From Aneurinibacillus thermoaerophilus (lineage in GTDB: Bacteria > Bacillota > Bacilli > Aneurinibacillales > Aneurinibacillaceae), in contig NZ_FNDE01000009.1 in NCBI RefSeq assembly GCF_900099925.1, positions 1 to 64,000 of the forward strand: a stretch of DNA of 64,000 nucleotides. Reading direction: 5' to 3'. This document shows, in pieces, positions 6,908 to 51,215 of the stretch (its first letter is position 1; every line of letters begins with the position of its first letter). The position numbers and the translations under genes are program-made. Below the pieces are notes generated by a model. It did no database searches and had not been told where the DNA came from. It saw nothing but the letters and a program-made list of their open reading frames with translations.

Positions 6908-6978
6908 ACAAACTCCCTCTGCTACTATGGCAACAAGGGAGTTTGTCTGCAAGCTGAAGCCCGGATCATATCCGGGCT
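6908..6978 (-). terminator. Two tandem hairpins downstream of the desaturase gene
   Basis: The first hairpin is ACAAACTCCCT/AGGGAGTTTGT (6908-6946), followed on the reverse strand by TTTCGTTTG. The second is AGCCCGGA/TCCGGGCT (6958-6978). Both lie just after the desaturase stop, and the first has the better T-rich tail. The remaining bases between here and the Uma2 remnant show no gene. Confidence 0.6.
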
Positions 6979-10705: not shown

Positions 10706-11455
10706 TTGAATACGCTGCCTGCTCTCCAAGTAAAGCTGGCTGATTGTGAGGACGAACTGAAAAAGGCGTTGCGTTTACGCTATGAAGTGTTCGCAGAAAA
10801 GGAAGCGAATCCGGCGCTGTATAACGAAAGCCGAATGGAAAGCGACATCTTCGACGAGCATTGCGACCATCTTATCGTAAAAGATACAAATACGAATCAG
10901 GTGGTTGGGACGTACCGTTTGCTCCCAGGCGAACGCGCTGTCATGCATAAAGGGTTTTATTCAGAAACAGAATTCGATCTATCCGGATTCACTGTCCCTA
11001 AATCCCAAATACTTGAAGTGGGACGAAGCTGCGTTGCTCCCGAGTATCGAGATGGAAAAACGATTCAACTCCTGTGGGAAGGCATCGCTGGCTACATCAT
11101 GGATGGTTTATTCTCACATCTTATCGGCTGTGCCAGCATTCCCGTCCAGAACATACATGAACTAAACCGGATGTACACGTTTCTTTGCGCTAAAAAGATG
11201 ATAACGGACCGATTCAAAGTACAACCGCTAATGTCACACCGGGTTACAGGATTGCGTACGGTGGATATAACCGGGCAGGAAAAAAACATTCTGCGTACGC
11301 TCCCGCCCTTGATTAAAGGATACCAACGATTAGGGGCGGAAATCGCCGGGGCCCCCGCATTCGACCCGATATTTCAGACCACCGATTTTTTCATTGTGCT
11401 GGAAACGTCACGCATCGCGCAAAAATACAAGCGGCACTTTATAAAAACTCCATAG
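10706..11455 (+). CDS. OlsB-like GNAT N-acyltransferase
   Basis: Matches the Acetyltransf_5 group (ornithine N-acyltransferase OlsB, glycine-lipid GlsB). Visible family segments: LRLRYEVFAEKEAN near residue 20, DIFDEHCDHLIVKD, VVGTYRLLPGE, GFYSETEFDLS, LEVGRSCVAPEYRDG (the strongest signature) and LLWEGIAGYI. Members move a 3-hydroxyacyl chain from ACP to the amino group of ornithine or glycine. I prefer the TTG start at 10706 with GGAAAGG ten bases upstream (249 residues); an ATG at 10679 lies before that site. The next gene, 17 bases on, is an acyltransferase, which together would suffice for an ornithine- or glycine-lipid type product. The amino substrate is inference. Confidence 0.8.
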   Translation: MNTLPALQVKLADCEDELKKALRLRYEVFAEKEANPALYNESRMESDIFDEHCDHLIVKDTNTNQVVGTYRLLPGERAVMHKGFYSETEFDLSGFTVPKSQILEVGRSCVAPEYRDGKTIQLLWEGIAGYIMDGLFSHLIGCASIPVQNIHELNRMYTFLCAKKMITDRFKVQPLMSHRVTGLRTVDITGQEKNILRTLPPLIKGYQRLGAEIAGAPAFDPIFQTTDFFIVLETSRIAQKYKRHFIKTP

Positions 11456-41980: not shown

Positions 41981-43174
41981 TTAATAAATACCCATTTTTT
42001 TATGCAAGTGAATTCTCCGTTCCTCTTCTCTCCTTCTTGGCTCCCGCACCGGTAGAAGCATCAATAGAAATCCGACAAGTACGATGAAGCCAGAGATGCC
42101 AAACGGAGCTTGCGGGAAGAGCTTATGGCCAAGCACCCCGGATAAAATCGGAGCTACTCCCGCTCCTAGCCAACGCACAAAATTGTAAACTCCTGACGTT
42201 ATGCTGCGCTCATACGGCGAAGATTCCATCACATGAGTCGTAAACAGGGCGTTGTTTAATCCTGAGAAAAGACCGGACAGTATGACCAATACGATTTGCA
42301 ACCACGTTAGTTTAACAAAATACAGAGCGAACAAAAACAAAGAGAAAAGCAACAATCCCCAGCGCAAAAGTTTTTTTACATCATACTTTTTTTCCAGCTT
42401 GTGTGATAAAACAGCCGAACCATAGGCAAGGCAAAGTCCCCAACCGAAAAAAATGAGCCCCAATTGAATAGTGGGTAAATTCATCACCAGCGGCGAATAC
42501 GCCAACACAGTGAAAAATCCGTAGTTATAAAACATACCTGCAAGCGCTCCGCGCAAAAACGGTGAATAGGAGAACAGGTGCCCCATTTCTTTGAATCCTG
42601 CCGTTTTTCTTTTTGGTCGCTGCCCAGGTACCTTAACAAAGAAACACACCAAAATAAAGGCAATAAAAATGAGTAAACCTGTGGAAATAAACGGATAACG
42701 CCACGTATAGCCGCCCAAAATACCACCAACCAAGGGACCACCGGCCATTCCCAAGCCAATGGCCGCTTCATACAATCCAACTGCTGAACTTACCTCTTTC
42801 GACAGGGCAATCAACAAGGTCATCGCCGTGGCAAAAAAGAAAGAGTTGCCAAGACCCCAGCCGGCCCGAAAGCTTGACAGTTCAGCAATCGTATTGGAAA
42901 ATCCGCACAGCAAAGCAAAAATAGTAACAATGATAAGACCGGCTACCATCATCGGCTTATCTCCGAATTTCCCGGCCAGCAAACCCGCAGGCAACATCAT
43001 AATCGCCATTGTAAAAATATAAGACGTAAACAGCATTTCAACTTGCCAGTGCGTAGCCCCGATTTGCTCAGCGATCGAAGGCAGAATCGGATCCACCACC
43101 CCAATTCCCATAAATGCGAGAAATGTGGCAAACATGGTAATGATTCTTGCCCTTCGTCTTTTGTTTTCCATCAT
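41981..43174 (-). CDS. MFS transporter (DHA1-type efflux)
   Basis: 397 residues with 12 membrane helices. MFS motif A appears as GLLAGKFGDKPMM after helix 2, and motif C region as AIGLGMAGGPLVGGILGG in helix 5, which points to drug:H+ antiporters. The substrate cannot be read. A PadR regulator gene is divergently transcribed 213 bases away, the usual arrangement for self-controlled efflux. Confidence 0.87.
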   Translation of the reverse strand: MMENKRRRARIITMFATFLAFMGIGVVDPILPSIAEQIGATHWQVEMLFTSYIFTMAIMMLPAGLLAGKFGDKPMMVAGLIIVTIFALLCGFSNTIAELSSFRAGWGLGNSFFFATAMTLLIALSKEVSSAVGLYEAAIGLGMAGGPLVGGILGGYTWRYPFISTGLLIFIAFILVCFFVKVPGQRPKRKTAGFKEMGHLFSYSPFLRGALAGMFYNYGFFTVLAYSPLVMNLPTIQLGLIFFGWGLCLAYGSAVLSHKLEKKYDVKKLLRWGLLLFSLFLFALYFVKLTWLQIVLVILSGLFSGLNNALFTTHVMESSPYERSITSGVYNFVRWLGAGVAPILSGVLGHKLFPQAPFGISGFIVLVGFLLMLLPVREPRRREEERRIHLHKKMGIY

Positions 43175-43270
43175 CCTCTCACTCCTTTATGTTATTCTTT
43201 CACACAACGCAATCCCCTGGCGATGCGTAGCAAAGCAGCTTACCAACAGCCGCTTTGAAAAGCAATTTAT

Positions 43271-43297
43271 ATGTCATTTTTTATATATAAAAGACAT
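43271..43297. promoter_or_regulatory. Inverted repeat in the MFS-padR intergenic region
   Basis: ATGTCATTTT and AAAAGACAT arms flank an AT-rich centre. PadR operators often contain ATGT/ACAT half sites. It lies between the divergent MFS and padR genes and could be the operator for both. Confidence 0.35.
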
Positions 43298-43387
43298 GAA
43301 ACAGTATACTGCCATCTATTTGCAGACGTCAATATTTATATATATAATTTTTTACATATATTCTGACCATAAACCGGAGGGAACCAT

Positions 43388-43966
43388 ATGAACGCTTTAG
43401 GATATGCTTTGCTTGGTATGCTGATGCGCAAGCCTTGTTCTGGATATGAGCTAACCCAGTTGCTCGAAGTATTCTGGCGGGCAAAACACAGCCAGGTGTA
43501 TCCTCTGCTGGCCAAACTGGAGCAAGAACAATATGTTACATTTGAACATGTTGAACAAACAGGAAAACCGGATAAGAAGATTTACTCAATTACCGATAAG
43601 GGAAAAAAATTGCTGCAAAAGTGGATTGCTCAAACACCGGCCGCTCCAGTGATACGGGATGAATTTTTGATTAAGGTATATTCCATCTGGCTGACAGATA
43701 AAAATACGGCGAAAAAGCTGTTTTGGGAACGTATTTCAACATTTGAAGAAAAAGTTACACACCGCAAAGAAGAAATCAAAAAAATGGAGGAAGAGTACGG
43801 GGAAACCATTACAAATTTTACATCCCGCCACTTTGGGCGGTATCTATTATTTAAACGAAAGCTAAGACAGGAAGAAGAAGAGATTATCTGGTGCCGCTGG
43901 GTGCTCGATCTGCTGGATAAAGCGAATGAGGACTCTGAGACATCCATAGAAGGAAAAAGGGAGTAA
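43388..43966 (+). CDS. PadR-family transcriptional regulator
   Basis: 192 residues. The N-terminal winged helix begins NALGYALLGMLMRKPCSGYE, then AKHSQVYPLLAKLEQEQYV and KKIYSITDKGKKLL; the C-terminal half is the helical Vir_act_alpha_C dimerisation domain. It has CCGGAGGGAA upstream of the ATG. PadR proteins usually repress a divergent efflux or detoxification gene and release on ligand binding. Here the intact MFS gene at 41981-43174 is the likely target, and a broken MFS gene follows downstream. Confidence 0.92.
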   Translation: MNALGYALLGMLMRKPCSGYELTQLLEVFWRAKHSQVYPLLAKLEQEQYVTFEHVEQTGKPDKKIYSITDKGKKLLQKWIAQTPAAPVIRDEFLIKVYSIWLTDKNTAKKLFWERISTFEEKVTHRKEEIKKMEEEYGETITNFTSRHFGRYLLFKRKLRQEEEEIIWCRWVLDLLDKANEDSETSIEGKRE

Positions 43967-43972
43967 ACACAA

Positions 43973-44006
43973 AAAGGGAGGCGTTCGCAAAAACACGTCT
44001 CCCCAT
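43973..44006 (+). terminator. Hairpin after padR
   Basis: GGGAGGCG/CGTCTCCC stem (one mismatch) with a loop of about 12 bases, followed by CATTCTTCTT. It begins just after the padR stop and may end that transcript; the tail is weak. Confidence 0.4.
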
Positions 44007-44708
44007 TCTTCTTATTTCTTCTCTTGCTATTCTTCAATCTTCCGGCGGCGCTCTTTGGGCAACGATTTTTCCCGTTCAAGTCGCATTTTCTTTTCACCTA
44101 AACAACAGGTAAAGCCGTTTCAAAAACAGCTTCAAGAAATCATAAAAAACAAAGCTTTATATCCTGTTTTCTTTACCGGAATTTGCATGATCTCATTACA
44201 AATGGTAATTGTTGGACATTTGACGATTTTTCTTACCAACACCGAATCATTATCGCCGATGCTGGCGGGACAAATCTTTTCGGTTTCGTTGTTTTTGGGA
44301 ATGGTAGGGCGGATTATTTTGGCATCGATTAGCGATTATTTTTACAGAGGAAATCGCAGGAAACCGCTTTTATTTTCTGTTCTAGCAGCTTTTGCTTCCG
44401 TATTAATCTTCACAATGAATATACATACTTTACCGCTTTGGAGTTTATTTTTGCTTAGCGGTTGGTTAGGTTTCTTCGGTATAGGTTGGTATAGCCTTTT
44501 TATCGTTGAAGTTGCTGAAAAATCATCAGAAGATTCAGTTGGTGTAACTGTCAGTTTTGCACTTACTTTAAATCAATTCGCTATCATTTCAGCCCCGCCT
44601 ATTTTTGGATTCATTGTGGATGTAAAAGGATATACCTGGGCATGGTTAAGCATAGCTTTTTTACTTCTTCTCTCAGGAATCGGGTTATTGAAAAACAAAA
44701 ATTGCTAA
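43981..44708 (+). pseudogene. Deleted MFS transporter gene
   Basis: An open frame at 43981-44112 reads RLPILLISSLAILQSSGGAL then WATIFPVQVAF, a convincing first helix of an MFS carrier, and stops. A second frame (44055-44708) continues with a linker (KPFQKQLQEII) and six membrane helices that look like the C-terminal half (TM7-12). The middle (about TM2-6) is missing and the two pieces are in different frames. No start codon with a ribosome binding site is seen for either. It follows padR directly and is most likely non-functional. Confidence 0.65.
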
Positions 44709-44861
44709 AAAGGGTTCTTACCACTAGATTATTGACAAATTAATAGGGTAACAGTCTGTGAAGCCTTAAGTCTTTGATTTTCTCGGAACACGTCTATGAA
44801 CCGCTCTGATTCGAAAATAAGCGCTCCGTCACCTTCTGCACCGCGTCCTGCGATGCATCAG

Positions 44862-44905
44862 ATTGAAGACAAACTCCCTTTCTGCAAGGGGAATTTGTCT
44901 TCAAT
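44862..44905. terminator. Strong hairpin, likely former terminator of the rsmF-like gene
   Basis: ATTGAAGACAAACTCCC pairs with GGGGAATTTGTCTTCAAT. On the reverse strand it follows the copy of the rsmF-like 3' end by about 15 bases. This is where the original terminator of that gene would lie if an element inserted at its 3' end. Confidence 0.5.
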
Positions 44906-44923
44906 CTAAATTCATACAATCAT

Positions 44924-44963
44924 ACCCAGCGCAATTCTTTGGGATAATGGTTTAACCCCATTT
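44924..44963 (-). repeat. Direct repeat copy 1 (candidate attachment site), 3' end of rsmF-like gene
   Basis: Forty bases containing CCCAGCGCAATTCTTTGGGA match 48674-48713 with three mismatches. On the reverse strand they spell HYPKELRWV and continue a few bases past; the intact gene ends HYPKGLRWV. There is no gene upstream of this copy. Confidence 0.7.
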
Positions 44964-45178
44964 ATGGCGTTCTGTACTATTGCGTTACATCCTTTTAAAT
45001 CAGGGGATTAACGTTTTTTGTTGTGTTTTGTTGCTTTAAAATGTGTTAACTTTGTTGCCATATTGTCCCCAATGCTGTCCCCATAATATTCTTGCTTTTA
45101 TTCAACTATTGATTCCCATCAGTTGCTCAAATTCTGATAAATCTTTTCATTGTTCAGGTTTACAAGCAAAGAAAATGA

Positions 45179-46246
45179 TCAACGAATGGGAATAGTTATC
45201 TCTAGTCCCTTGACTACATCTGAAGGAAGAGCATTTTGATCTTGAGTAATAGGACGTACAGTTAAAGATTTGGGTGGTTCTTGAAAAGGTTGGTAGATCG
45301 CTTTCCAACGAACGGTTTCTTTCTCCCTATCTATTTTATTTTCCTCAGCTGATGAACTAAGAAGTCCTATTTTATTTCCTTTATCATCAATTACTTCAAA
45401 AATCGTCGAAAGTGCTCCGCTTGGTTGGATCAATTGCCCCACTAATTCAGTTGAGTTGACTGAGAATGTGACCTTTTCAAGTATTACGGTCATGTCTTTA
45501 TACGTTTTTGTTAACATTGGTACAATTTGTTTATTTGAAGTGTCATTCTTCACAACTGGGAAGGAAAAAGACCAATCCCCCTTTATATCTCCAATCTGTG
45601 TAATAGCAAGATCGAACTTAAATTTGTCGGGTAATGGTTCACTTGTGCTAAAGTTAATGACGCCCACAGTATGATGGTCATCAATACGATGGCTCGCCCC
45701 GCCAGCCCCCCATTTCTCAGGTAAGTTTCCATTTATTTTTATAGCTTTTTCTTGATAAACCCTGTCAGGCAATTTATCAGGAGACTCCAGTATATATCCA
45801 ACGGAGACCTGTGAGCCGTCATAAAAGACTTCCGTGATGGTAACCGTGATATCCTTGTCAGTCGCGACTTTCTGTATATTAGTGACTAAACCTTTTTCTT
45901 GGGCCTTTTTGAGTCCGTCACCACCCACAATACTAAATACCGATTGAATTAGAGGCATCTGTTTTAGAGTTTGGGCAAAACCGGGGTATGTAACACCGAC
46001 TCCTATTACCAACACTAGCGACGCTGCGGCAGCTGTTATGAGAACGCCCGTTTTTTTGAAAATTTCCCTTCTCCCATACGCAATAGAAGTAGTTACCGAT
46101 TTTTGGAGTATGGGCCACGATTGTCTAGTTTTCAATTCTTTTTGTTCCTCTAATTTTTGAAACACACGTTTTTTGAAATTCTCAACATTTACAGTATGAT
46201 TTTCGTGATAAAGTTTAGCAGCTTTGATTTGCTTGTCCAAACTCAT
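45179..46246 (-). CDS. DUF4179-type membrane anti-sigma factor
   Basis: 355 residues. A short cytosolic N-terminal part (about 1-65) is followed by one membrane helix (GVLITAAAASLVLVIGVGV), then a long extracytoplasmic region typical of DUF4179/DUF5643 proteins (ITVTITEVFYDGSQVSVGY near residue 133; GDWSFSFPVVKN near 225). Such proteins bind and hold an ECF sigma factor at the membrane. GGGAGGAGG lies before the ATG. It overlaps the sigma gene by 32 bases. It lies within the element-like region. Confidence 0.82.
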   Translation of the reverse strand: MSLDKQIKAAKLYHENHTVNVENFKKRVFQKLEEQKELKTRQSWPILQKSVTTSIAYGRREIFKKTGVLITAAAASLVLVIGVGVTYPGFAQTLKQMPLIQSVFSIVGGDGLKKAQEKGLVTNIQKVATDKDITVTITEVFYDGSQVSVGYILESPDKLPDRVYQEKAIKINGNLPEKWGAGGASHRIDDHHTVGVINFSTSEPLPDKFKFDLAITQIGDIKGDWSFSFPVVKNDTSNKQIVPMLTKTYKDMTVILEKVTFSVNSTELVGQLIQPSGALSTIFEVIDDKGNKIGLLSSSAEENKIDREKETVRWKAIYQPFQEPPKSLTVRPITQDQNALPSDVVKGLEITIPIR

Positions 46247-46751
46247 GATATTCCTCCTCCCATACTTTTCTTAATCGTTCTCTGCCTCGTGCTAGTCTAG
46301 ACTTCACTGTTCCTTCATTTATCCCAAGTATTTCGGAAATTTGTTTTAACGATAACTCTTCAAAGTAATACAGAATTATGGGGGTACGATAAGGTTCCAG
46401 AAGTTTTAGAACAACCTCGTACATTTTTTGATTAGACTCCATTGCTAAAAAGGTATCTTCCGAGCTAATATCAGCACGCTCAGGCAATAGTGCGGATATG
46501 ATTTCCCTCCACCCTTTCCTTTGTGCCATTCTACACTCGTTAATGACAATTTTAGCAAGCCAAGGGAATGGGTCATGCTCTTCCTTGAATTGATCCATTT
46601 TTTCGTACACCTTAACAAAAGCATCCTGTACCTTATCCTCTGCTGTTCCCCACTCACGAACGTATGTATACGCAAGGCGAACTAAACGCTGAGTGTACAA
46701 ATCCATCCATGTTTCTAGTCGTTTTTCACGCTCCAATTTTATCCTCACCAT
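46215..46751 (-). CDS. ECF RNA polymerase sigma factor
   Basis: 178 residues from the ATG at 46751 (AGGTG upstream; the frame is open to 46913 but that part is not family-like). Region 2 reads LVRLAYTYVREWGTAEDKVQ then DAFVKVYEKM; region 4 reads LSLKQISEILGINEGTVKSR with LARGRERLRK. It lacks other domains. It overlaps the anti-sigma gene, the normal coupled arrangement. A GGAACC box about 40 bases upstream on the reverse strand may be an ECF -35 element for self-activation. Confidence 0.88.
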   Translation of the reverse strand: MVRIKLEREKRLETWMDLYTQRLVRLAYTYVREWGTAEDKVQDAFVKVYEKMDQFKEEHDPFPWLAKIVINECRMAQRKGWREIISALLPERADISSEDTFLAMESNQKMYEVVLKLLEPYRTPIILYYFEELSLKQISEILGINEGTVKSRLARGRERLRKVWEEEYHEFGQANQSC

Positions 46752-46786
46752 CCTTTCACCTGTATTATGCAAAAAAGCAGAAATAG

Positions 46787-46792
46787 GTTCCC
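46787..46792 (-). promoter_or_regulatory. Possible ECF-type -35 element
   Basis: GGAACC on the reverse strand, preceded by T/G-rich sequence, about 36 bases upstream of the sigma gene start. It resembles the GGAAC core of ECF promoters. No clear -10 (CGTC-like) is seen, so this is tentative. Confidence 0.25.
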
Positions 46793-46948
46793 AGTTTAAA
46801 AAAAAATAATTAAACCATTCACAACCAAAATATGGATATGACATCGACAAAAAACACCCTTTCAGGAGTTCTAAGATTCTGCAAGTTATTCCGCTATTCT
46901 GCCCGTTAGCCATCCATGCAGCACAAAAAAGTGCTGCACCATAGAGAA

Positions 46949-47166
46949 TGACCCCCTGTCAAGTAGACAGGAATAAAAAAGCACTTTTAAGCAGCCTGAG
47001 TCCTATATTCATAAGGACTCAGGTTATTTAATTTCTTTTGGAAATGTTGATGGTTATAAAAACGAATATATTTGTGTACGGCATCTTTCACCTCTTCAAC
47101 CGTGCGGAAAGAGTACAGATTGAAACACTCTGACTTGAAATGGCTGAAGAAGTTTTCCATGCTGCA
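46949..47166 (-). mobile_element. Right-end fragment of an IS3-family (IS150-type) insertion sequence
   Basis: The reverse strand encodes the last 57 residues of an IS3 OrfB transposase: MENFFSHFKSECFNLYSFRT, VEEVKDAVHKYIRFYNHQHF and NNLSPYEYRTQAA before the stop. The terminal end TGACCCCCTGTCAAGTAGACA-like sequence lies at 46949. The rest of the transposase, including most of the DDE core, and the left end are missing. The break near 47166 joins it directly to a truncated PepSY gene. Confidence 0.85.
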
Positions 47167-47176
47167 TATTGACTAA

Positions 47177-47548
47177 TATAGCGGAAAAATACTAGCAGAC
47201 TTACGTTTTCAAGATTATGGTCCATTAGCGAAAGCTATTTCCATTGGAGTTGCTTTACACGAAGGTCATTATTTTGGGCTAGCTAATCAATTGCTTGATC
47301 TAATTATCTGTCTTGGTCTTATAGGAATTACAATAAGCGGTGTGATCATGTGGTGGAAACGGAAACTAACTGGAAAATTCGGCACTCCATCCTTGCCAAA
47401 AGATTTTAAAATACAAAAAGGAGCCGCTTTTATTATCATTGTTTTTGGTGTCATTTTTCCGTTAGTTGAAATATCTCTATTAATTGTGTTAGCCTTAGAT
47501 TGGCTCGTAATTAAAAGAATGCCGGCAATAAAGCAATGGATTGGATAG
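47177..47548 (+). pseudogene. 5'-truncated PepSY-associated membrane protein gene
   Basis: In frame from 47177 (after a stop at 47174): YSGKILADLRFQDYGPLAKA, ISIGVALHEGHYFGLANQLL, then membrane helices (LDLIICLGLIGITISGVIMWW and a later pair near VFGVIFPLVEISLLIVLALDW). The SGxxL-D-ADY-P-A-KAIxxGxxLHEGxxFG pattern is the C-terminal part of PepSY-TM proteins (iron-regulated, about 450 residues). The N-terminal two thirds are gone at the junction with the IS fragment. Confidence 0.78.
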
Positions 47549-47591
47549 AGGATGCCATTGATGTAAATACTGTGTGCTGTAGGAGTTACTC

Positions 47592-47909
47592 ATGTACCGT
47601 ATCACAAGACTGATTCATCGCATAGCAGGAATAATCGGGGCCATTCTCATGCTGATTATGGCAATCACAGGATTGTTACTAAATCATCGATCATTCATTG
47701 GCTATAGTTCAGAAATGGAAATGAAGCTACAGAAATTTATATTTGGCCTTCACTCTGGAACAATAGGGAAAATGTCTATTGTATGGCTTACTGATGTAGG
47801 AGCGATTTGTATGATTGTGTTAAGTATGACAGGAATATGGATGTGGTTTAAAGGAGATCGCAAGATGAAACCTGTAGATACACGTTTAAAAAGGGGAAAT
47901 GATGAATGA
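47592..47909 (+). CDS. Small membrane protein, PepSY-associated TM type
   Basis: 105 residues with two or three hydrophobic helices: MYRITRLIHRIAGIIGAILM and VWLTDVGAICMIVLSMTGIWMW. The R-x-x-HRxxG...TGLLLNH pattern (LIHRIAGIIGAIL, TGLLLNHR) is that of PepSY-associated TM helices, whose His residues may bind heme or metal. It overlaps the following lipoprotein gene by four bases and follows the PepSY remnant, so the three formed an operon. Confidence 0.7.
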   Translation: MYRITRLIHRIAGIIGAILMLIMAITGLLLNHRSFIGYSSEMEMKLQKFIFGLHSGTIGKMSIVWLTDVGAICMIVLSMTGIWMWFKGDRKMKPVDTRLKRGNDE

Positions 47910-48376
47910 GAACCAAAAACGTTATATTTGCTTCACTTGTTTTGTTATTTGGTTTAGGACTAACTGGGTGTAGCTCTTCATCTCAACAACCAGCACAAGA
48001 TCATGTTCATCATGAAGAAGGACAACCTCATCAGCATGAAGGTGGAGATACAACGAGTCCTAATAATACTCAAGTAGAGAAAGCAATCAAAGATGAAATA
48101 CAAGGACTCGCTACCATTGAAAGCAATGTTAATAAAAATGATTTCCAAAGCGCTAGTACATTATTTGACCAAATTCATGAAGAGTATCATTCTGCTATAC
48201 TCCCTTCAGTAAAAGCCAAAAACGCAAAATTAGCTGAGGATATGCATGGTAAATTTGATGCTTTAGAAGACGCTATTAAGAATAAGGATAAAACCAAAAC
48301 GTTAAATATGATTAAAATAAATCGCGACAATCTCAATCAAGCTGCTAAAGAGTTAGGGATTTCATTAAAACAATAG
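47906..48376 (+). CDS. His-rich lipoprotein, probable metal-binding
   Basis: 156 residues. Lipobox: signal helix ASLVLLFGLGLTGC with Cys at 22. A His/Glu-rich segment follows (DHVHHEEGQPHQHEGGD, residues 32-48). The rest, about 55-156, is helical and charged (KNDFQSASTLFDQIHEEYHS, then KFDALEDAIKNKDK), suggesting a small helical bundle. The cluster of His suggests binding of a transition metal outside the cell. With the PepSY-type neighbours it suggests a metal-uptake or reductase module, now partly broken. The exact metal is not known. Confidence 0.7.
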   Translation: MRTKNVIFASLVLLFGLGLTGCSSSSQQPAQDHVHHEEGQPHQHEGGDTTSPNNTQVEKAIKDEIQGLATIESNVNKNDFQSASTLFDQIHEEYHSAILPSVKAKNAKLAEDMHGKFDALEDAIKNKDKTKTLNMIKINRDNLNQAAKELGISLKQ

Positions 48377-48395
48377 GTTTGGATACAGCGAGCCA

Positions 48396-48503
48396 ATGAA
48401 AACAAAAACAGAAGCAAGGAACGTATACACCAAAGAACAGGTAACGGCTCTGCTACAAGCAGTACGAGAAGAGGAGATTCAGATGTACTGGCAAATATGC
48501 TGA
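48396..48503 (+). pseudogene. Fragment of a tyrosine-type integrase
   Basis: Thirty-five codons read KTEARNVYTKEQVTALLQAV then REEEIQMYWQIC and stop. The ARNVYTxEQVxxLLxAVREE...YW pattern is the entry to the catalytic domain of phage-type tyrosine integrases. Nothing before or after continues the homology in frame. It is one of two integrase-like scraps in the element-like region. The rest of the 300 bases between the lipoprotein and the rsmF-like gene holds no gene. Confidence 0.45.
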
Positions 48504-48637
48504 GCAATGAAAAAGGTAACCAACAATCATCTGGTCAGTACTTCATAGAATTTGCTCTTGTTAGATGATATAACGCTGCGCTTGTCTACAAATTGTCCCC
48601 AATTCCCCTCTTATAAAAGACAACCTGTAATATAGAA

Positions 48638-48662
48638 AAACCCCTTAATTAATAAGGGGTTT
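48638..48662 (-). terminator. Terminator of the rsmF-like gene
   Basis: AAACCCCTT/AAGGGGTTT stem with a short AT loop, followed on the reverse strand by TTTTCT. It lies about 20 bases after the stop of the intact gene. Confidence 0.8.
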
Positions 48663-48673
48663 ATGACTATGTT

Positions 48674-48713
48674 TCATACACTCACACCCAGCGCAATCCT
48701 TTGGGATAATGGT
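48674..48713 (-). repeat. Direct repeat copy 2 (candidate attachment site), 3' end of the intact rsmF-like gene
   Basis: Matches 44924-44963 at 37 of 40 bases, including the codons for the last nine residues and the stop. It is part of the intact gene. Confidence 0.7.
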
Positions 48714-50037
48714 TCTTTAACTGTCCCTGCACCAGCTTGCCCCAGCCTAGCGGATAGCCATCCACCGTCACCACGTCCCAACCCTTTCCAGTCTTCTGCA
48801 CAAACAGGCTTTCCCCTTTTAAATACCGGTACACTTCATCGCTGTCAGTGGAAAAGTTGACATTCCGCTTCCATTCTCCGGGCTTCAGTGCCAGCGCCAG
48901 TGCGTGTGAAGGTTCAAACCGATCCTTCTTAACGGTTCCCATATGCCAGCCCGCCCGCGCGATCTTGAGTCCTTTCAAACTTGGCAGACCATCCGCCAAA
49001 AGGTAGAGTTGTTCACCGAACAACGCATACTGTCCTTCGGGGATAAATGTCAGCGTTTCGCGACAGAATGCTTCAAATAATTTGCGCGTAGCTGCGGGAA
49101 TCGGCTTTACCTTTCCTGCCCCCGGTTTTTCTGATCGCTCCCCAGTGCTAGCGCTCTTGCGCAGGCGGGCGAGAAAATGTCCCTCTCCGCTCAATTTGTG
49201 GGGCCAAAGGCGGTATGTATTCGCCAGTTTCCCACGCTCAAAGAAACATTCTCCCTGCGCCACCGGCTCCAGGGAAAATTCAGGGTGTGATAAAAGAAAC
49301 CTTTCAATCTGCCATTCATTTTCTTCTTCCGAAAATGTACAGGTGGAATATACCATCACGCCGCCTGGCTTCAGCATGATGGAAGCCGATTCCAAAATAT
49401 CCGCCTGCATGAATGCACAATGCCCTATCTTCTCTTCCGACCAATCATCGCACGCTTCCGGCAGCTTGCGGAACATCCCCTCGCCCGAGCACGGGGCATC
49501 CACCACAATCTTGTCAAAGAAACCGCGGAACCGTTCGGCCATACGTTCCGGCGTTTCATTCACCACTAAAATATTACGCGCCCCCCAGCGCTCCAGATTT
49601 TCTGAAAGCACTTTTACGCGGGTTGGGTGGATTTCATTCGCTACCAGCAAGCCGCTATTTCCAAGATAGCTGGAAATATGGGTTGATTTTCCACCTGGTG
49701 CTGCGCATAAATCAAGCACAATATCTCCTGGCTCTGGCTTGAGCGCTTCCACCACCGCCATTGCGCTTGGTTCTTGAATATAATATAGACCTGCTGCATG
49801 GTACGGATGCTTTCCAGGTCTATCCTTTTCATGATAATAAAACCCGAGCGGGCACCACGAAACCGGCGTCAAGGAAAACGGCATCTTTACGATGAATTCA
49901 TCCAGCGGTACTTTCGCCGGATTCAGACGCAATCCATGCGCTGCGCTCCCGGTATAACTCGCGAGAAATGCTGCCGCCTCCTGTTCACCAATCATCTGCT
50001 TTATCCGTTGCACAAAACGTTCAGGTAACGCTGTCAT
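48682..50037 (-). CDS. RsmF-like rRNA cytosine-C5 methyltransferase (NOL1/NOP2/Sun family)
   Basis: 451 residues from the ATG at 50037 (AAAGGATGG upstream; an ATG at 50046 and a longer frame to 50106 exist). Methyltransferase motifs: DLCAAPGGKSTHISSYLG near residue 110, NEIHPTRVKVL, DAPCSGEGMFRK with the catalytic Cys, and VYSTCTFSEEEN with the second Cys. The C-terminal part is the PUA-like RsmF extension. It methylates a cytosine in rRNA. The 3' end is duplicated 3.7 kb away. Confidence 0.9.
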   Translation of the reverse strand: MTALPERFVQRIKQMIGEQEAAAFLASYTGSAAHGLRLNPAKVPLDEFIVKMPFSLTPVSWCPLGFYYHEKDRPGKHPYHAAGLYYIQEPSAMAVVEALKPEPGDIVLDLCAAPGGKSTHISSYLGNSGLLVANEIHPTRVKVLSENLERWGARNILVVNETPERMAERFRGFFDKIVVDAPCSGEGMFRKLPEACDDWSEEKIGHCAFMQADILESASIMLKPGGVMVYSTCTFSEEENEWQIERFLLSHPEFSLEPVAQGECFFERGKLANTYRLWPHKLSGEGHFLARLRKSASTGERSEKPGAGKVKPIPAATRKLFEAFCRETLTFIPEGQYALFGEQLYLLADGLPSLKGLKIARAGWHMGTVKKDRFEPSHALALALKPGEWKRNVNFSTDSDEVYRYLKGESLFVQKTGKGWDVVTVDGYPLGWGKLVQGQLKNHYPKGLRWV

Positions 50038-50112
50038 TCTATCCATCCTTTTTTCTTGCTGTGATGCCAAATATATTACCAAAAATCGTCCAGAAAAACG
50101 AGGCAAAATGAA

Positions 50113-50154
50113 CAGAAGGGCGGGTGCCCGGTTAAAAGCCGGACATCCGCCCTT
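50113..50154 (-). terminator. Terminator of the stalk-domain protein gene
   Basis: AGGGCGG/CCGCCCT outer stem with an inner CCGG/CCGG, directly after the stop at 50170. A T-rich tail is short. Confidence 0.65.
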
Positions 50155-50169
50155 TACATGAAACCAAAA

Positions 50170-50835
50170 TTAGTTTGTTTTAATCGTTGTCTTGATATGG
50201 ACGGTCGCGTTTTTCGCATCCCATTCCACACTTGCACCTAACGCTTCGCTTACGAAACGCAACGGCACCATTGTACGATTGTTAACGATAGTAGCTTTTT
50301 GGTTCAGCTTTACTTTCTTGCCGTTCACCACAGCATTTTGGTCACCGATTTTAATCATCACTTTCCGGTTTCCTTTCGTCGCATACACAGTTTGTTTCTT
50401 GGCATCCCACTTGATTTCGGCTCCCAGTGCTTCGAAGATGCTGCGCAGCGGAACAACTGTGCGATTATTGATGATAATCGGCTTCTGGTTTGTAATCATA
50501 ATTTTGCCATTTATTTTAATTACGATTACACTCGGCTTTTTCGCCTCTTCTTTAGGCTTGTCCTCTTTTCCAGGAGTGACCGTGACAGAATCCCCCGTCG
50601 TTACCGTAACCGAATCTCCTGTCGTTGCTTTCCATTGCTTTTCAATGTTATCCATAATATGCTGTCTCGCCGTTTCGTTTTTTACGTGCTCCAAAGCGTT
50701 TTCAAGGCCAGTTTTCTTCGTGGTTGATTCCTGTTTCTGCGGCTTGGCTGTAGCATCCGCCGTTTGTGCGAACACGGAAGTCCCTCCCGCAAGCAAAGTT
50801 GCCGCCAGCAAACTGCTTACAATTTTCTTATTCAT
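50170..50835 (-). CDS. Secreted protein with copper-amine-oxidase-like stalk domains
   Basis: 221 residues. Signal peptide: MNKKIVSSLLAATLLAGGTS, cleavage near VFAQT. A charged linker with GDSVTVT repeated twice (residues 73-87) is followed by two copies of the PF07833-type domain: VIKINGKIMITNQKPIIINN, NRTVVPLRSIFEALGAEIKWDA and NGKKVKLNQKATIVNNRTMV with PLRFVSEALGASVEWDA. Such domains occur in cell-wall and surface proteins of Bacillales. It stands alone with AAAAGGAGAG upstream. Confidence 0.85.
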   Translation of the reverse strand: MNKKIVSSLLAATLLAGGTSVFAQTADATAKPQKQESTTKKTGLENALEHVKNETARQHIMDNIEKQWKATTGDSVTVTTGDSVTVTPGKEDKPKEEAKKPSVIVIKINGKIMITNQKPIIINNRTVVPLRSIFEALGAEIKWDAKKQTVYATKGNRKVMIKIGDQNAVVNGKKVKLNQKATIVNNRTMVPLRFVSEALGASVEWDAKNATVHIKTTIKTN

Positions 50836-50975
50836 GCCATTCTCTCCTTTTCATGATGATGTTTCGCCTGTACTGTCATAACTTTCGCAGAGAGGATATT
50901 TTTTCTGTCGCATTTTTCGACATAAATAAGAAAGGGCCCCGTCTATCATACAAATGGGGAATCGCTGTTACAGCT

Positions 50976-51215
50976 TTACAGCTTCAATAAGCGGATAAAT
51001 TCCTTATTGCGATGTACTCTTTCCATTTCGTCTGCCAAATCATATTTTTTCAGCAAATGAAATACGTAATTCAACTCTTCCTGCGTGCGTCCACTTTCCA
51101 AGTACGTGGGCAGCACCGCAACAATGCGATCCGGCAAATGCGGTGCGATGACTTCCAGTTTTTTACGTATATCTTCAAGCGAATGATCAAGATTGCAGGT
51201 TGATTTTTGCTCCAT
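50976..51215 (-). CDS. Small hypothetical protein
   Basis: 79 residues, MEQKSTCNLDHSLEDIRKKL then EVIAPHLPDRIVAVLPTYLE, helical and charged, no motif I recognise. GGAAGATAAT lies upstream of the ATG. It is divergent from the Na/Pi symporter gene. The codon use and a ribosome binding site support a real gene, but the family is unknown to me. Confidence 0.55.
   Translation of the reverse strand: MEQKSTCNLDHSLEDIRKKLEVIAPHLPDRIVAVLPTYLESGRTQEELNYVFHLLKKYDLADEMERVHRNKEFIRLLKL

What the first reader, a model, noticed from the sequence alone, without database searches (positions are those of the whole stretch)
44924..48713. Degraded integrative element at the 3' end of an rRNA methyltransferase gene
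A 40-base segment spanning the last codons of the rsmF-like gene (48674-48713) is repeated at 44924-44963 (37/40 identical). The left copy is the gene's tail without a gene, followed by a strong hairpin (44862-44905) that may be the original terminator; the intact gene now has another terminator (48638-48662). Two integrase-like scraps (GDSIGDNMATK near 45,060; NVYTKEQVTALLQAV at 48396) lie near the two ends, both by the motif GTCCCC. This is the signature of site-specific integration at a gene's 3' end, with the gene restored by the element. tRNA genes are common targets; a NOL1/NOP2/Sun methyltransferase gene is less often described.
Basis: partly seen in the sequence, partly recalled or inferred. 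Interest (0 to 1): 0.6.

Follow-up and report, generated by a model that had tools for sequence, protein, structure and literature searches.

The report
Decayed mobile element at rsmF's end
A worn-out piece of mobile DNA sits at the very end of a ribosome-modifying gene; it once slotted in there with its own enzyme and rebuilt the end of the gene so that the host kept a working copy, which is a known trick at an unusual address.

Summary
A 42-base direct repeat (39/42) marks 44911-44952 and the last codons of an rsmF-type gene (48673-48714); 20 dinucleotide shuffles give at most 29/42. Its left end (44959-45090) recurs at 6 further places in the same family (5 of 151 genomes hold it, window's included). 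Its right end (48480-48663) matches a second decayed element in same-genus G004, with a clear integrase pseudogene. ATTGTCCCCAA occurs only twice in 64 kb, once per end; its core GTCCCCAA is paired on both sides of the integrase gene's end in a phage: probable arm-type sites. Corrections: the left 'integrase scrap' is those repeats mistranslated; the right one is real. The hairpin 44860-44907 belongs to a dispersed repeat. The terminator 48638-48662 resembles congeners' rsmF terminators; G004 has a similar block beside its integrase without rsmF, so the element may bring last codons, UTR and terminator, though this is less certain. No empty site with conserved flanks was found. Known kind (CIME-like remnant); target rarely described; interest moderate.

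The parts
44911..44952 (.). left copy of the repeat (attL-like): rsmF tail without gene; reads NHYPKELRWV* on the minus strand
48673..48714 (.). right copy of the repeat (attR-like): last codons, stop and start of the 3' UTR of rsmF
44937..44952 (.). identical core CTTTGGGATAATGGTT, left copy; its partner is 48699-48714; all three mismatches of the repeat lie outside it, so the crossover most likely lies inside it (inference)
44959..45090 (+). left element end (LE), with a hairpin at about 44982-45014
   Evidence: recurs in G002, G004 (3 places), G006, G008; fold
45062..45083 (+). two direct repeats TGTCCCCA (45064, 45076): probable arm-type integrase sites at the left end
   Evidence: compared with a phage
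45179..46246 (-). cargo: DUF4179/DUF5643 protein, probable anti-sigma factor (function inferred from the neighbouring sigma factor)
   Evidence: 45097-46815 is 94% identical to G002:C6:5293-7021
46215..46913 (-). cargo: ECF-type sigma factor (start codon uncertain; the G002 homologue is 185 aa)
46953..47160 (-). end fragment of an IS3-family insertion sequence (transposase C-terminus only)
47161..47909 (+). remnant of PepSY-type membrane protein genes (Pfam support for the ORF 47592-47909 only)
47906..48376 (+). lipoprotein-like ORF (by eye), 156 aa, no Pfam family
48390..48568 (+). tyrosine integrase pseudogene: start of the catalytic domain fused to the C-terminus, about 0.5 kb lost between them compared with the G004 pseudogene
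48592..48602 (+). ATTGTCCCCAA: probable arm-type site at the right end
48638..48662 (.). terminator hairpin between the convergent integrase remnant and rsmF; possibly element-borne
48682..50037 (-). rsmF-type 16S rRNA methyltransferase gene, the target, intact
44860..44907 (.). hairpin left of the left copy: member of a dispersed palindromic repeat, not shown to be rsmF's terminator
44055..44708 (+). truncated MFS transporter gene outside the left repeat; 90% identical DNA lies between LE and the rsmF tail in G002

Best explanation
About 3.7 kb (44937-48714) is the decayed remnant of an integrative element that a tyrosine integrase put into the last codons of an rsmF-type gene. SHOWN: the repeat; left and right ends that recur in related genomes; an integrase pseudogene at the gene-proximal end; the same 11-mer near both ends; an intact target gene. 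INFERRED: the crossover lay in the identical 16 bp CTTTGGGATAATGGTT. The gene kept its body, and the element supplied the last five or so codons and the stop codon and, less surely, the 3' UTR and a terminator that faces both rsmF and the convergent integrase gene; the host's old tail was pushed to 44911-44952. The integrase bound the TTGTCCCCAA arm repeats at both ends. Later the integrase lost about 0.5 kb of its catalytic domain, and cargo (sigma/anti-sigma pair, PepSY and lipoprotein genes, an IS3 fragment) was gained or eroded, so it can no longer move by itself. An older element at the same site is suggested by G002 and by the MFS remnant just outside the left repeat.
For: Repeat 39/42 against at most 29 in 20 shuffles, sharp edges. 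Only two such sites in the own genome. LE: E = 3.8e-31 to G004, with further places in G002, G004, G006, G008; 7 places in 5 of 151 genomes, reversed-pattern control 0 in all. Right end: 69% over 190 nt to G004 (E 1.4e-14) and 73% over 123 nt to G003:C66 (E 4e-13). The G004 integrase fragment matches PF00589 (E 6e-9), and four of its pieces match an integrase profile at E 9.8e-34 to 1.6e-9; the window piece scores E 1.2e-4 among the fragments tested. The junction CGCAATCC...CATTTATGG has 21 nt between in both G004 and the window's rejoined ends. ATTGTCCCCAA only at 45062 and 48592. A related phage integrase has GTCCCCAA twice in its gene end and twice 0.25 kb downstream. In G002, LE lies 4.5 kb from the rsmF tail, and the usual terminator is missing behind that tail.
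Against: No intact element of this family was found, nor an integrase within the held flanks of rsmF in 80 loci of genome contigs. No empty site with conserved flanks on both sides. Of 25 other integrase loci of the order with a usable ORF, none shows the paired GTCCCC repeats (3 have a single one within 0.5 kb of the gene end), and the phage stretch holds 9 GTCCCC in 5.3 kb, so the motif is not confined to the ends there. G004 has a different 21-nt core and no close rsmF, so its element does not show the same target. The UTR next to rsmF looks like the native one of congeners, and without the shared CGCAATCC it is not significantly like G004's (13/30 identical, 62 of 1000 shuffles as good), so the origin of UTR and terminator from the element rests on G004's layout alone.
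Confidence: 0.9

Rival explanations
1. Partial duplication of rsmF (or of a paralogue) left the tail copy at 44911-44952; no integration took place.
For: The left copy reads as an rsmF tail with a stop codon.
Against: Homology is limited to 42 bp with sharp edges. The DNA on the inner side of the left copy is an element end known from other genomes. The nearest other rsmF-like gene of the own genome is only 49% identical in protein, and the own genome has no third copy of the tail.
Confidence: 0.03
2. The integration is real, but the terminator and UTR at 48638-48672 are rsmF's own; the element inserted beyond them or the region was reconverted by homologous recombination, so the element did not bring a terminator.
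For: The 30 bases of UTR are like those of G005, G003 and G008 (0 of 1000 shuffles as good for each) and not significantly like G004's (62 of 1000); no LE was found in G003 or G005.
Against: In G004 a block of integrase end, GTCCCC, terminator, rsmF-like UTR (19/30 to G005 and G008, 3 and 2 of 1000 shuffles as good) and CGCAATCC is contiguous although no close rsmF is present there, and LE sits next to the left tail copy in the register expected if the block belongs to the element.
Confidence: 0.4
3. The left repeat is not the host's old tail but the right end of an older, more decayed element of a tandem array (accretion), whose cargo included the MFS gene.
For: The MFS gene flanks the rsmF tail in both G002 and the window at 90% DNA identity, while rsmF itself is 72% identical; in G002 it lies between LE and the tail. 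Passages of PMC7563491 describe such arrays with the most decayed element farthest from the target.
Against: No integrase trace or second LE was recognised left of 44911; a dispersed hairpin lies there instead.
Confidence: 0.35

Closest known systems
CIMEs / microCIMEs (decayed integrative elements that keep attL and attR; passages of PMC5704250 and PMC7563491)
   Same: Element flanked by att-like repeats at a gene's 3' end, own recombinase lost, possible tandem accretion.
   Different: Descent from a conjugative or mobilizable element cannot be shown; no transfer gene is left. The targets in the passages seen are streptococcal.
Tyrosine-integrase ICEs at 3' ends of tRNA or housekeeping genes (PMC4701971, passages)
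   Same: Integrase gene at one end next to the target, flanking direct repeats, target gene kept whole.
   Different: Target is an rsmF-type rRNA methyltransferase gene; no conjugation module; the element may also bring a UTR and terminator.
SCCmec / ECC cassettes at the 3' region of rlmH (PMC6222049, passages)
   Same: Insertion at the 3' end of an RNA methyltransferase gene; remnants known.
   Different: Those use large serine recombinases (ccrAB); here the remnant is a tyrosine integrase.
rumA-targeting ICEs and IMEs (PMC4701971, PMC5704250, passages)
   Same: Target is an rRNA methyltransferase gene.
   Different: Serine integrases at an internal site, which change or disrupt the gene; here the gene end is whole.
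Integration module of Paenibacillus larvae phage GIW2016 (L216)
   Same: Integrase 45% identical over the matched part; GTCCCCAA pairs in the integrase gene end and 0.25 kb downstream.
   Different: Complete phage; no rsmF-like core noticed by eye in the 481 bases read.

Membership tests
Tyrosine-recombinase integrative element at a gene 3' end | direct repeats at both borders, one completing the target gene | tested here: met
Tyrosine-recombinase integrative element at a gene 3' end | tyrosine integrase gene next to one border | tested here: met
   as a pseudogene only; the G004 sister fragment matches PF00589, the window peptide alone has no Pfam match
Tyrosine-recombinase integrative element at a gene 3' end | arm-type integrase binding sites at both ends | tested here: inconclusive
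   shared 11-mer at both ends and a phage parallel; binding not testable here
Tyrosine-recombinase integrative element at a gene 3' end | empty site with a single repeat in relatives | tested here: inconclusive
   one tail copy genome-wide in G003 and G005 at up to 3 mismatches, one recognisable tail near rsmF in G008 and G010, but no conserved downstream flank
CIME | att sites retained, recombinase and transfer genes lost | tested here: met
CIME | derived from an ICE or IME | not testable with these tools
   no transfer gene among the ORFs scanned
ICE / IME | relaxase or conjugation genes | tested here: not met
   none among the nine ORFs scanned, six of them inside the element
Prophage | phage structural or lysis genes | tested here: not met
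   no such Pfam match; no DNA match in the phage collection
SCC/ECC cassette chromosome | ccr serine recombinases at rlmH | tested here: not met
   target is rsmF type; recombinase remnant is of the tyrosine type

The most novel reading that the evidence does not exclude
A family of integrative elements, so far seen only in this one bacterial family, whose integrase-side end carries a captured copy of rsmF's last codons, 3' UTR and a two-way terminator, so that insertion rebuilds the whole functional end of the gene including its transcription stop. Between two constant ends lies a 21-nt core that differs between the window and G004, as if G004's element had switched target while still carrying the rsmF-derived end as a fossil of its former address.
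Probability: 0.3. Interest if true: 0.5.

Novelty: new member of a known kind. Interest (0 to 1): 0.35.

Why it matters
It adds an rsmF-type rRNA methyltransferase gene to the list of protein genes whose 3' ends serve as integration sites, and gives diagnostic end sequences with which intact members can be sought. If the terminator really travels with the element, it is a clear case of an element protecting its target's transcript end, and a fossil record of target switching.

Tried and rejected
Left scrap as integrase: rejected. The peptide GDSIGDNMATK is the minus-strand reading of TGTCCCCA repeats; a typed query that included it found nothing in phages, and neither did the related typed reading from G004 in plasmids. 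The right scrap as a short typed peptide also found no integrase in phages and no Pfam family; it was recognised only through G004 and the profile.

Hairpin 44860-44907 as the old terminator of rsmF: not supported; 11 arm matches in the own genome, reversed-pattern control 0.

G002's tail: I first took its UTR to be cut exactly at CGCAATCC. A recheck shows weak likeness to the native UTRs (20 to 54 of 1000 shuffles as good for G003, G005, G008), so the border there is not defined; only the missing terminator and the LE remain as evidence.

Tail repeats or integrases beside rsmF elsewhere: in 114 loci with a located rsmF end, some from the same genomes and many with at most 1.5 kb of flank, no same-strand second tail was found; three loci (L067, L087, L092) gave opposite-strand matches with 4 of 24 mismatches, taken as chance. 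The window's own short locus also scored none, since its second copy lies beyond its flank. A 5-of-20-mismatch match at L117:16443 (G010) was also taken as chance. An integrase profile found nothing in the held flanks of the 80 genome-contig loci. Elements longer than 10 kb would be missed.

Viral matches: the tail pattern had 0 matches. A short LE pattern had 4 (L182-L185), in all four inside one and the same gene, with no visible similarity beyond the pattern; dropped as chance (ORFs listed for two of the four). L215 was not read. A terminator-only match in G006 (G006:C1:1660236) was fetched (L176) but not followed.

One search used a mis-spaced LE pattern and its tally (1 of 398) is void; the corrected pattern was run on 151 genomes. 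An apparent 8.8-kb element in G006 turned out to be a short dispersed repeat.

Not in print? Searches listed no paper whose title or shown abstract concerns integration at rsmF; this is weak evidence, since only open papers are held and the term NOL1/NOP2/sun could not be searched.
Full report
OBSERVATION. The repeat is real and slightly longer than reported: 44911-44952 and 48673-48714, 39 of 42 identical, spacing 3762. In 43001-51000 the best 42-base direct match in 20 dinucleotide shuffles was 26-29; identity falls to 9/30 and 5/30 just outside the repeat. The own assembly (3.66 Mb, 103 contigs) has this sequence at these two places only at up to 3 mismatches. All three mismatches lie on one side of an identical 16-bp stretch, CTTTGGGATAATGGTT. 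The right copy is the end of a full-length RsmF-type gene on the minus strand; the left copy reads NHYPKELRWV and a stop codon, without a gene.

ELEMENT ENDS. The DNA just inside the left copy (44959-45090, LE) recurs in related genomes: G004 at three places, G002, G006 and G008. A 32-base LE pattern was found at 7 places in 5 of 151 genomes, all in the window's family, with none for the reversed pattern. The DNA just inside the right copy (48480-48663) matches G004:C1:2760960-2761149 (69%), and 48480-48602 matches G003:C66:1352-1474 (73%). The shared stretch runs over the end of an integrase gene, a GTCCCC motif and, in G004, the terminator. In G004 it is the end of a tyrosine integrase pseudogene: one open piece matches PF00589, and four pieces match a profile built from 11 integrases of the order. 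The window keeps 48390-48482 and 48480-48568 of it, with about 0.5 kb missing between. The piece with NVYTKEQVTALLQAV scores E = 1.2e-4 among the fragments tested and had no Pfam match on its own.

ARM SITES. TGTCCCCA occurs four times in the 64-kb window on both strands, three of them at the two element ends; ATTGTCCCCAA occurs exactly twice, at 45062 and 48592. In a Paenibacillus larvae phage with a related integrase (45% identity of the matched part), GTCCCCAA occurs twice in the last 32 bases of the integrase gene and twice about 0.25 kb downstream. This is the layout expected of arm-type sites around attP (general knowledge of tyrosine integrases; the phage's attP was not mapped here). 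The 5.3-kb phage stretch holds 9 GTCCCC on both strands in all, 6 of them within 120 bases before and 700 bases after the gene end. Among 25 other integrase loci of the order with a usable ORF (3 more had none) no such pairs were seen; three had one GTCCCC within 0.5 kb. So the motif would mark this subfamily, not all integrases.

TARGET REGENERATION AND TERMINATOR. If the crossover lies in the identical core, the element supplied the last five or so codons, the stop codon, the UTR and the terminator 48638-48662. Against this, the window's UTR is like the native ones of G005, G003 and G008 (0 of 1000 shuffles as good in each), which also have a similar terminator there. For it, G004, in which the rsmF query found only a 35% match, has integrase end, GTCCCC, terminator, an rsmF-like UTR and CGCAATCC in one block, followed 21 nt later by LE. 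The window's right and left ends, when joined, give the same 21-nt spacing. The 21 bases themselves differ. With CGCAATCC left out, 30 bases of G004's UTR have 19/30 identity with G005 and with G008 (3 and 2 of 1000 shuffles as good), 17/30 with G003 (17), 16/30 with G010 (30), 13/30 with the window's right copy (62), 11/30 with its left copy (151) and 11/30 with G002 (377). I favour an element-borne terminator only mildly, at about 0.55.

RELATED LOCI. In G002, LE lies at L113:5875, then genes that look by eye like a CoA transferase and a LysR regulator, then the MFS gene, then the rsmF tail at L113:10341. The usual terminator is missing behind that tail, and its UTR is at best weakly like the native ones. 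This suggests a second integration at rsmF in another species, with borders now blurred. The same MFS gene (90% DNA identity, against 72% for rsmF) lies truncated just outside the left repeat in the window, which hints at tandem accretion. G003 and G005 hold one tail copy genome-wide at up to 3 mismatches; G008 and G010 have one recognisable tail near rsmF. Downstream DNA of G005, G008 and G010 does not match the window's and the G003 contig ends 158 bases after the gene, so none is a strict empty site. The best rsmF matches in G001, G004 and G006 are 47%, 35% and 36% identical.

CARGO. The sigma/anti-sigma pair is 94% identical to DNA elsewhere in G002 (45097-46815), where no LE pattern was found on that contig. 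An IS3-type end fragment, PepSY-type remnants and a lipoprotein-like ORF follow. No relaxase, conjugation or phage gene was seen among nine ORFs, six of them inside the element.

KNOWN KIND. Passages (not whole papers) seen: PMC4701971: site-specific tyrosine integrases of streptococcal ICEs mostly use tRNA (9 of 73) or housekeeping genes (30 of 73), while rumA is used by serine integrases. PMC5704250 and PMC7563491: decayed elements that keep att sites are called CIMEs; accretion occurs, with the most decayed element farthest from the target. PMC6222049: ECC and SCCmec at rlmH use serine recombinases. PMC9035990 was of no use. The window element is a CIME-like remnant by anatomy; its descent from an ICE or IME is untestable. 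Searches listed no paper whose title or shown abstract concerns rsmF as an integration site.

LIMITS. No intact element was found. The LE distribution was tested with the right pattern on 151 genomes of the class only, which left out some members of the order (for instance G007, G010, G014); an earlier, similar pattern found nothing in those three.

Noticed in passing
44860-44907 and 6935-6955: A palindromic repeat (AGATTGAAGACAAACTCCCTT arm) is dispersed in the own genome: 11 arm matches at up to 3 mismatches, two of them the arms of the hairpin at 44860-44907; reversed-pattern control 0.
   Followed up: partly
45097-46815: The ECF sigma / DUF4179 pair is 94% identical to DNA at another locus (after an ssb-like gene, by eye) in G002: recent transfer or shared mobile cargo.
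   Followed up: partly
L170:7534-7663 and 11208-11249: G004 has LE at both sides of a 3.7-kb stretch with the integrase pseudogene and a permease-like gene (by eye); the second LE follows the right end directly, as in a tandem or attP-like junction.
   Followed up: partly
L171:9724 and L173:9435: Solo LE copies at what looks like the same site in G004 and G006, upstream of a small gene, with no right end found in the 19-kb stretches.
   Followed up: partly
43969-44094: An intergenic stretch 80% alike to G000:C46:178358-178499, next to the truncated MFS gene.
   Followed up: no
1-252: The window begins with one end of a 23S rRNA gene on the minus strand.
   Followed up: no
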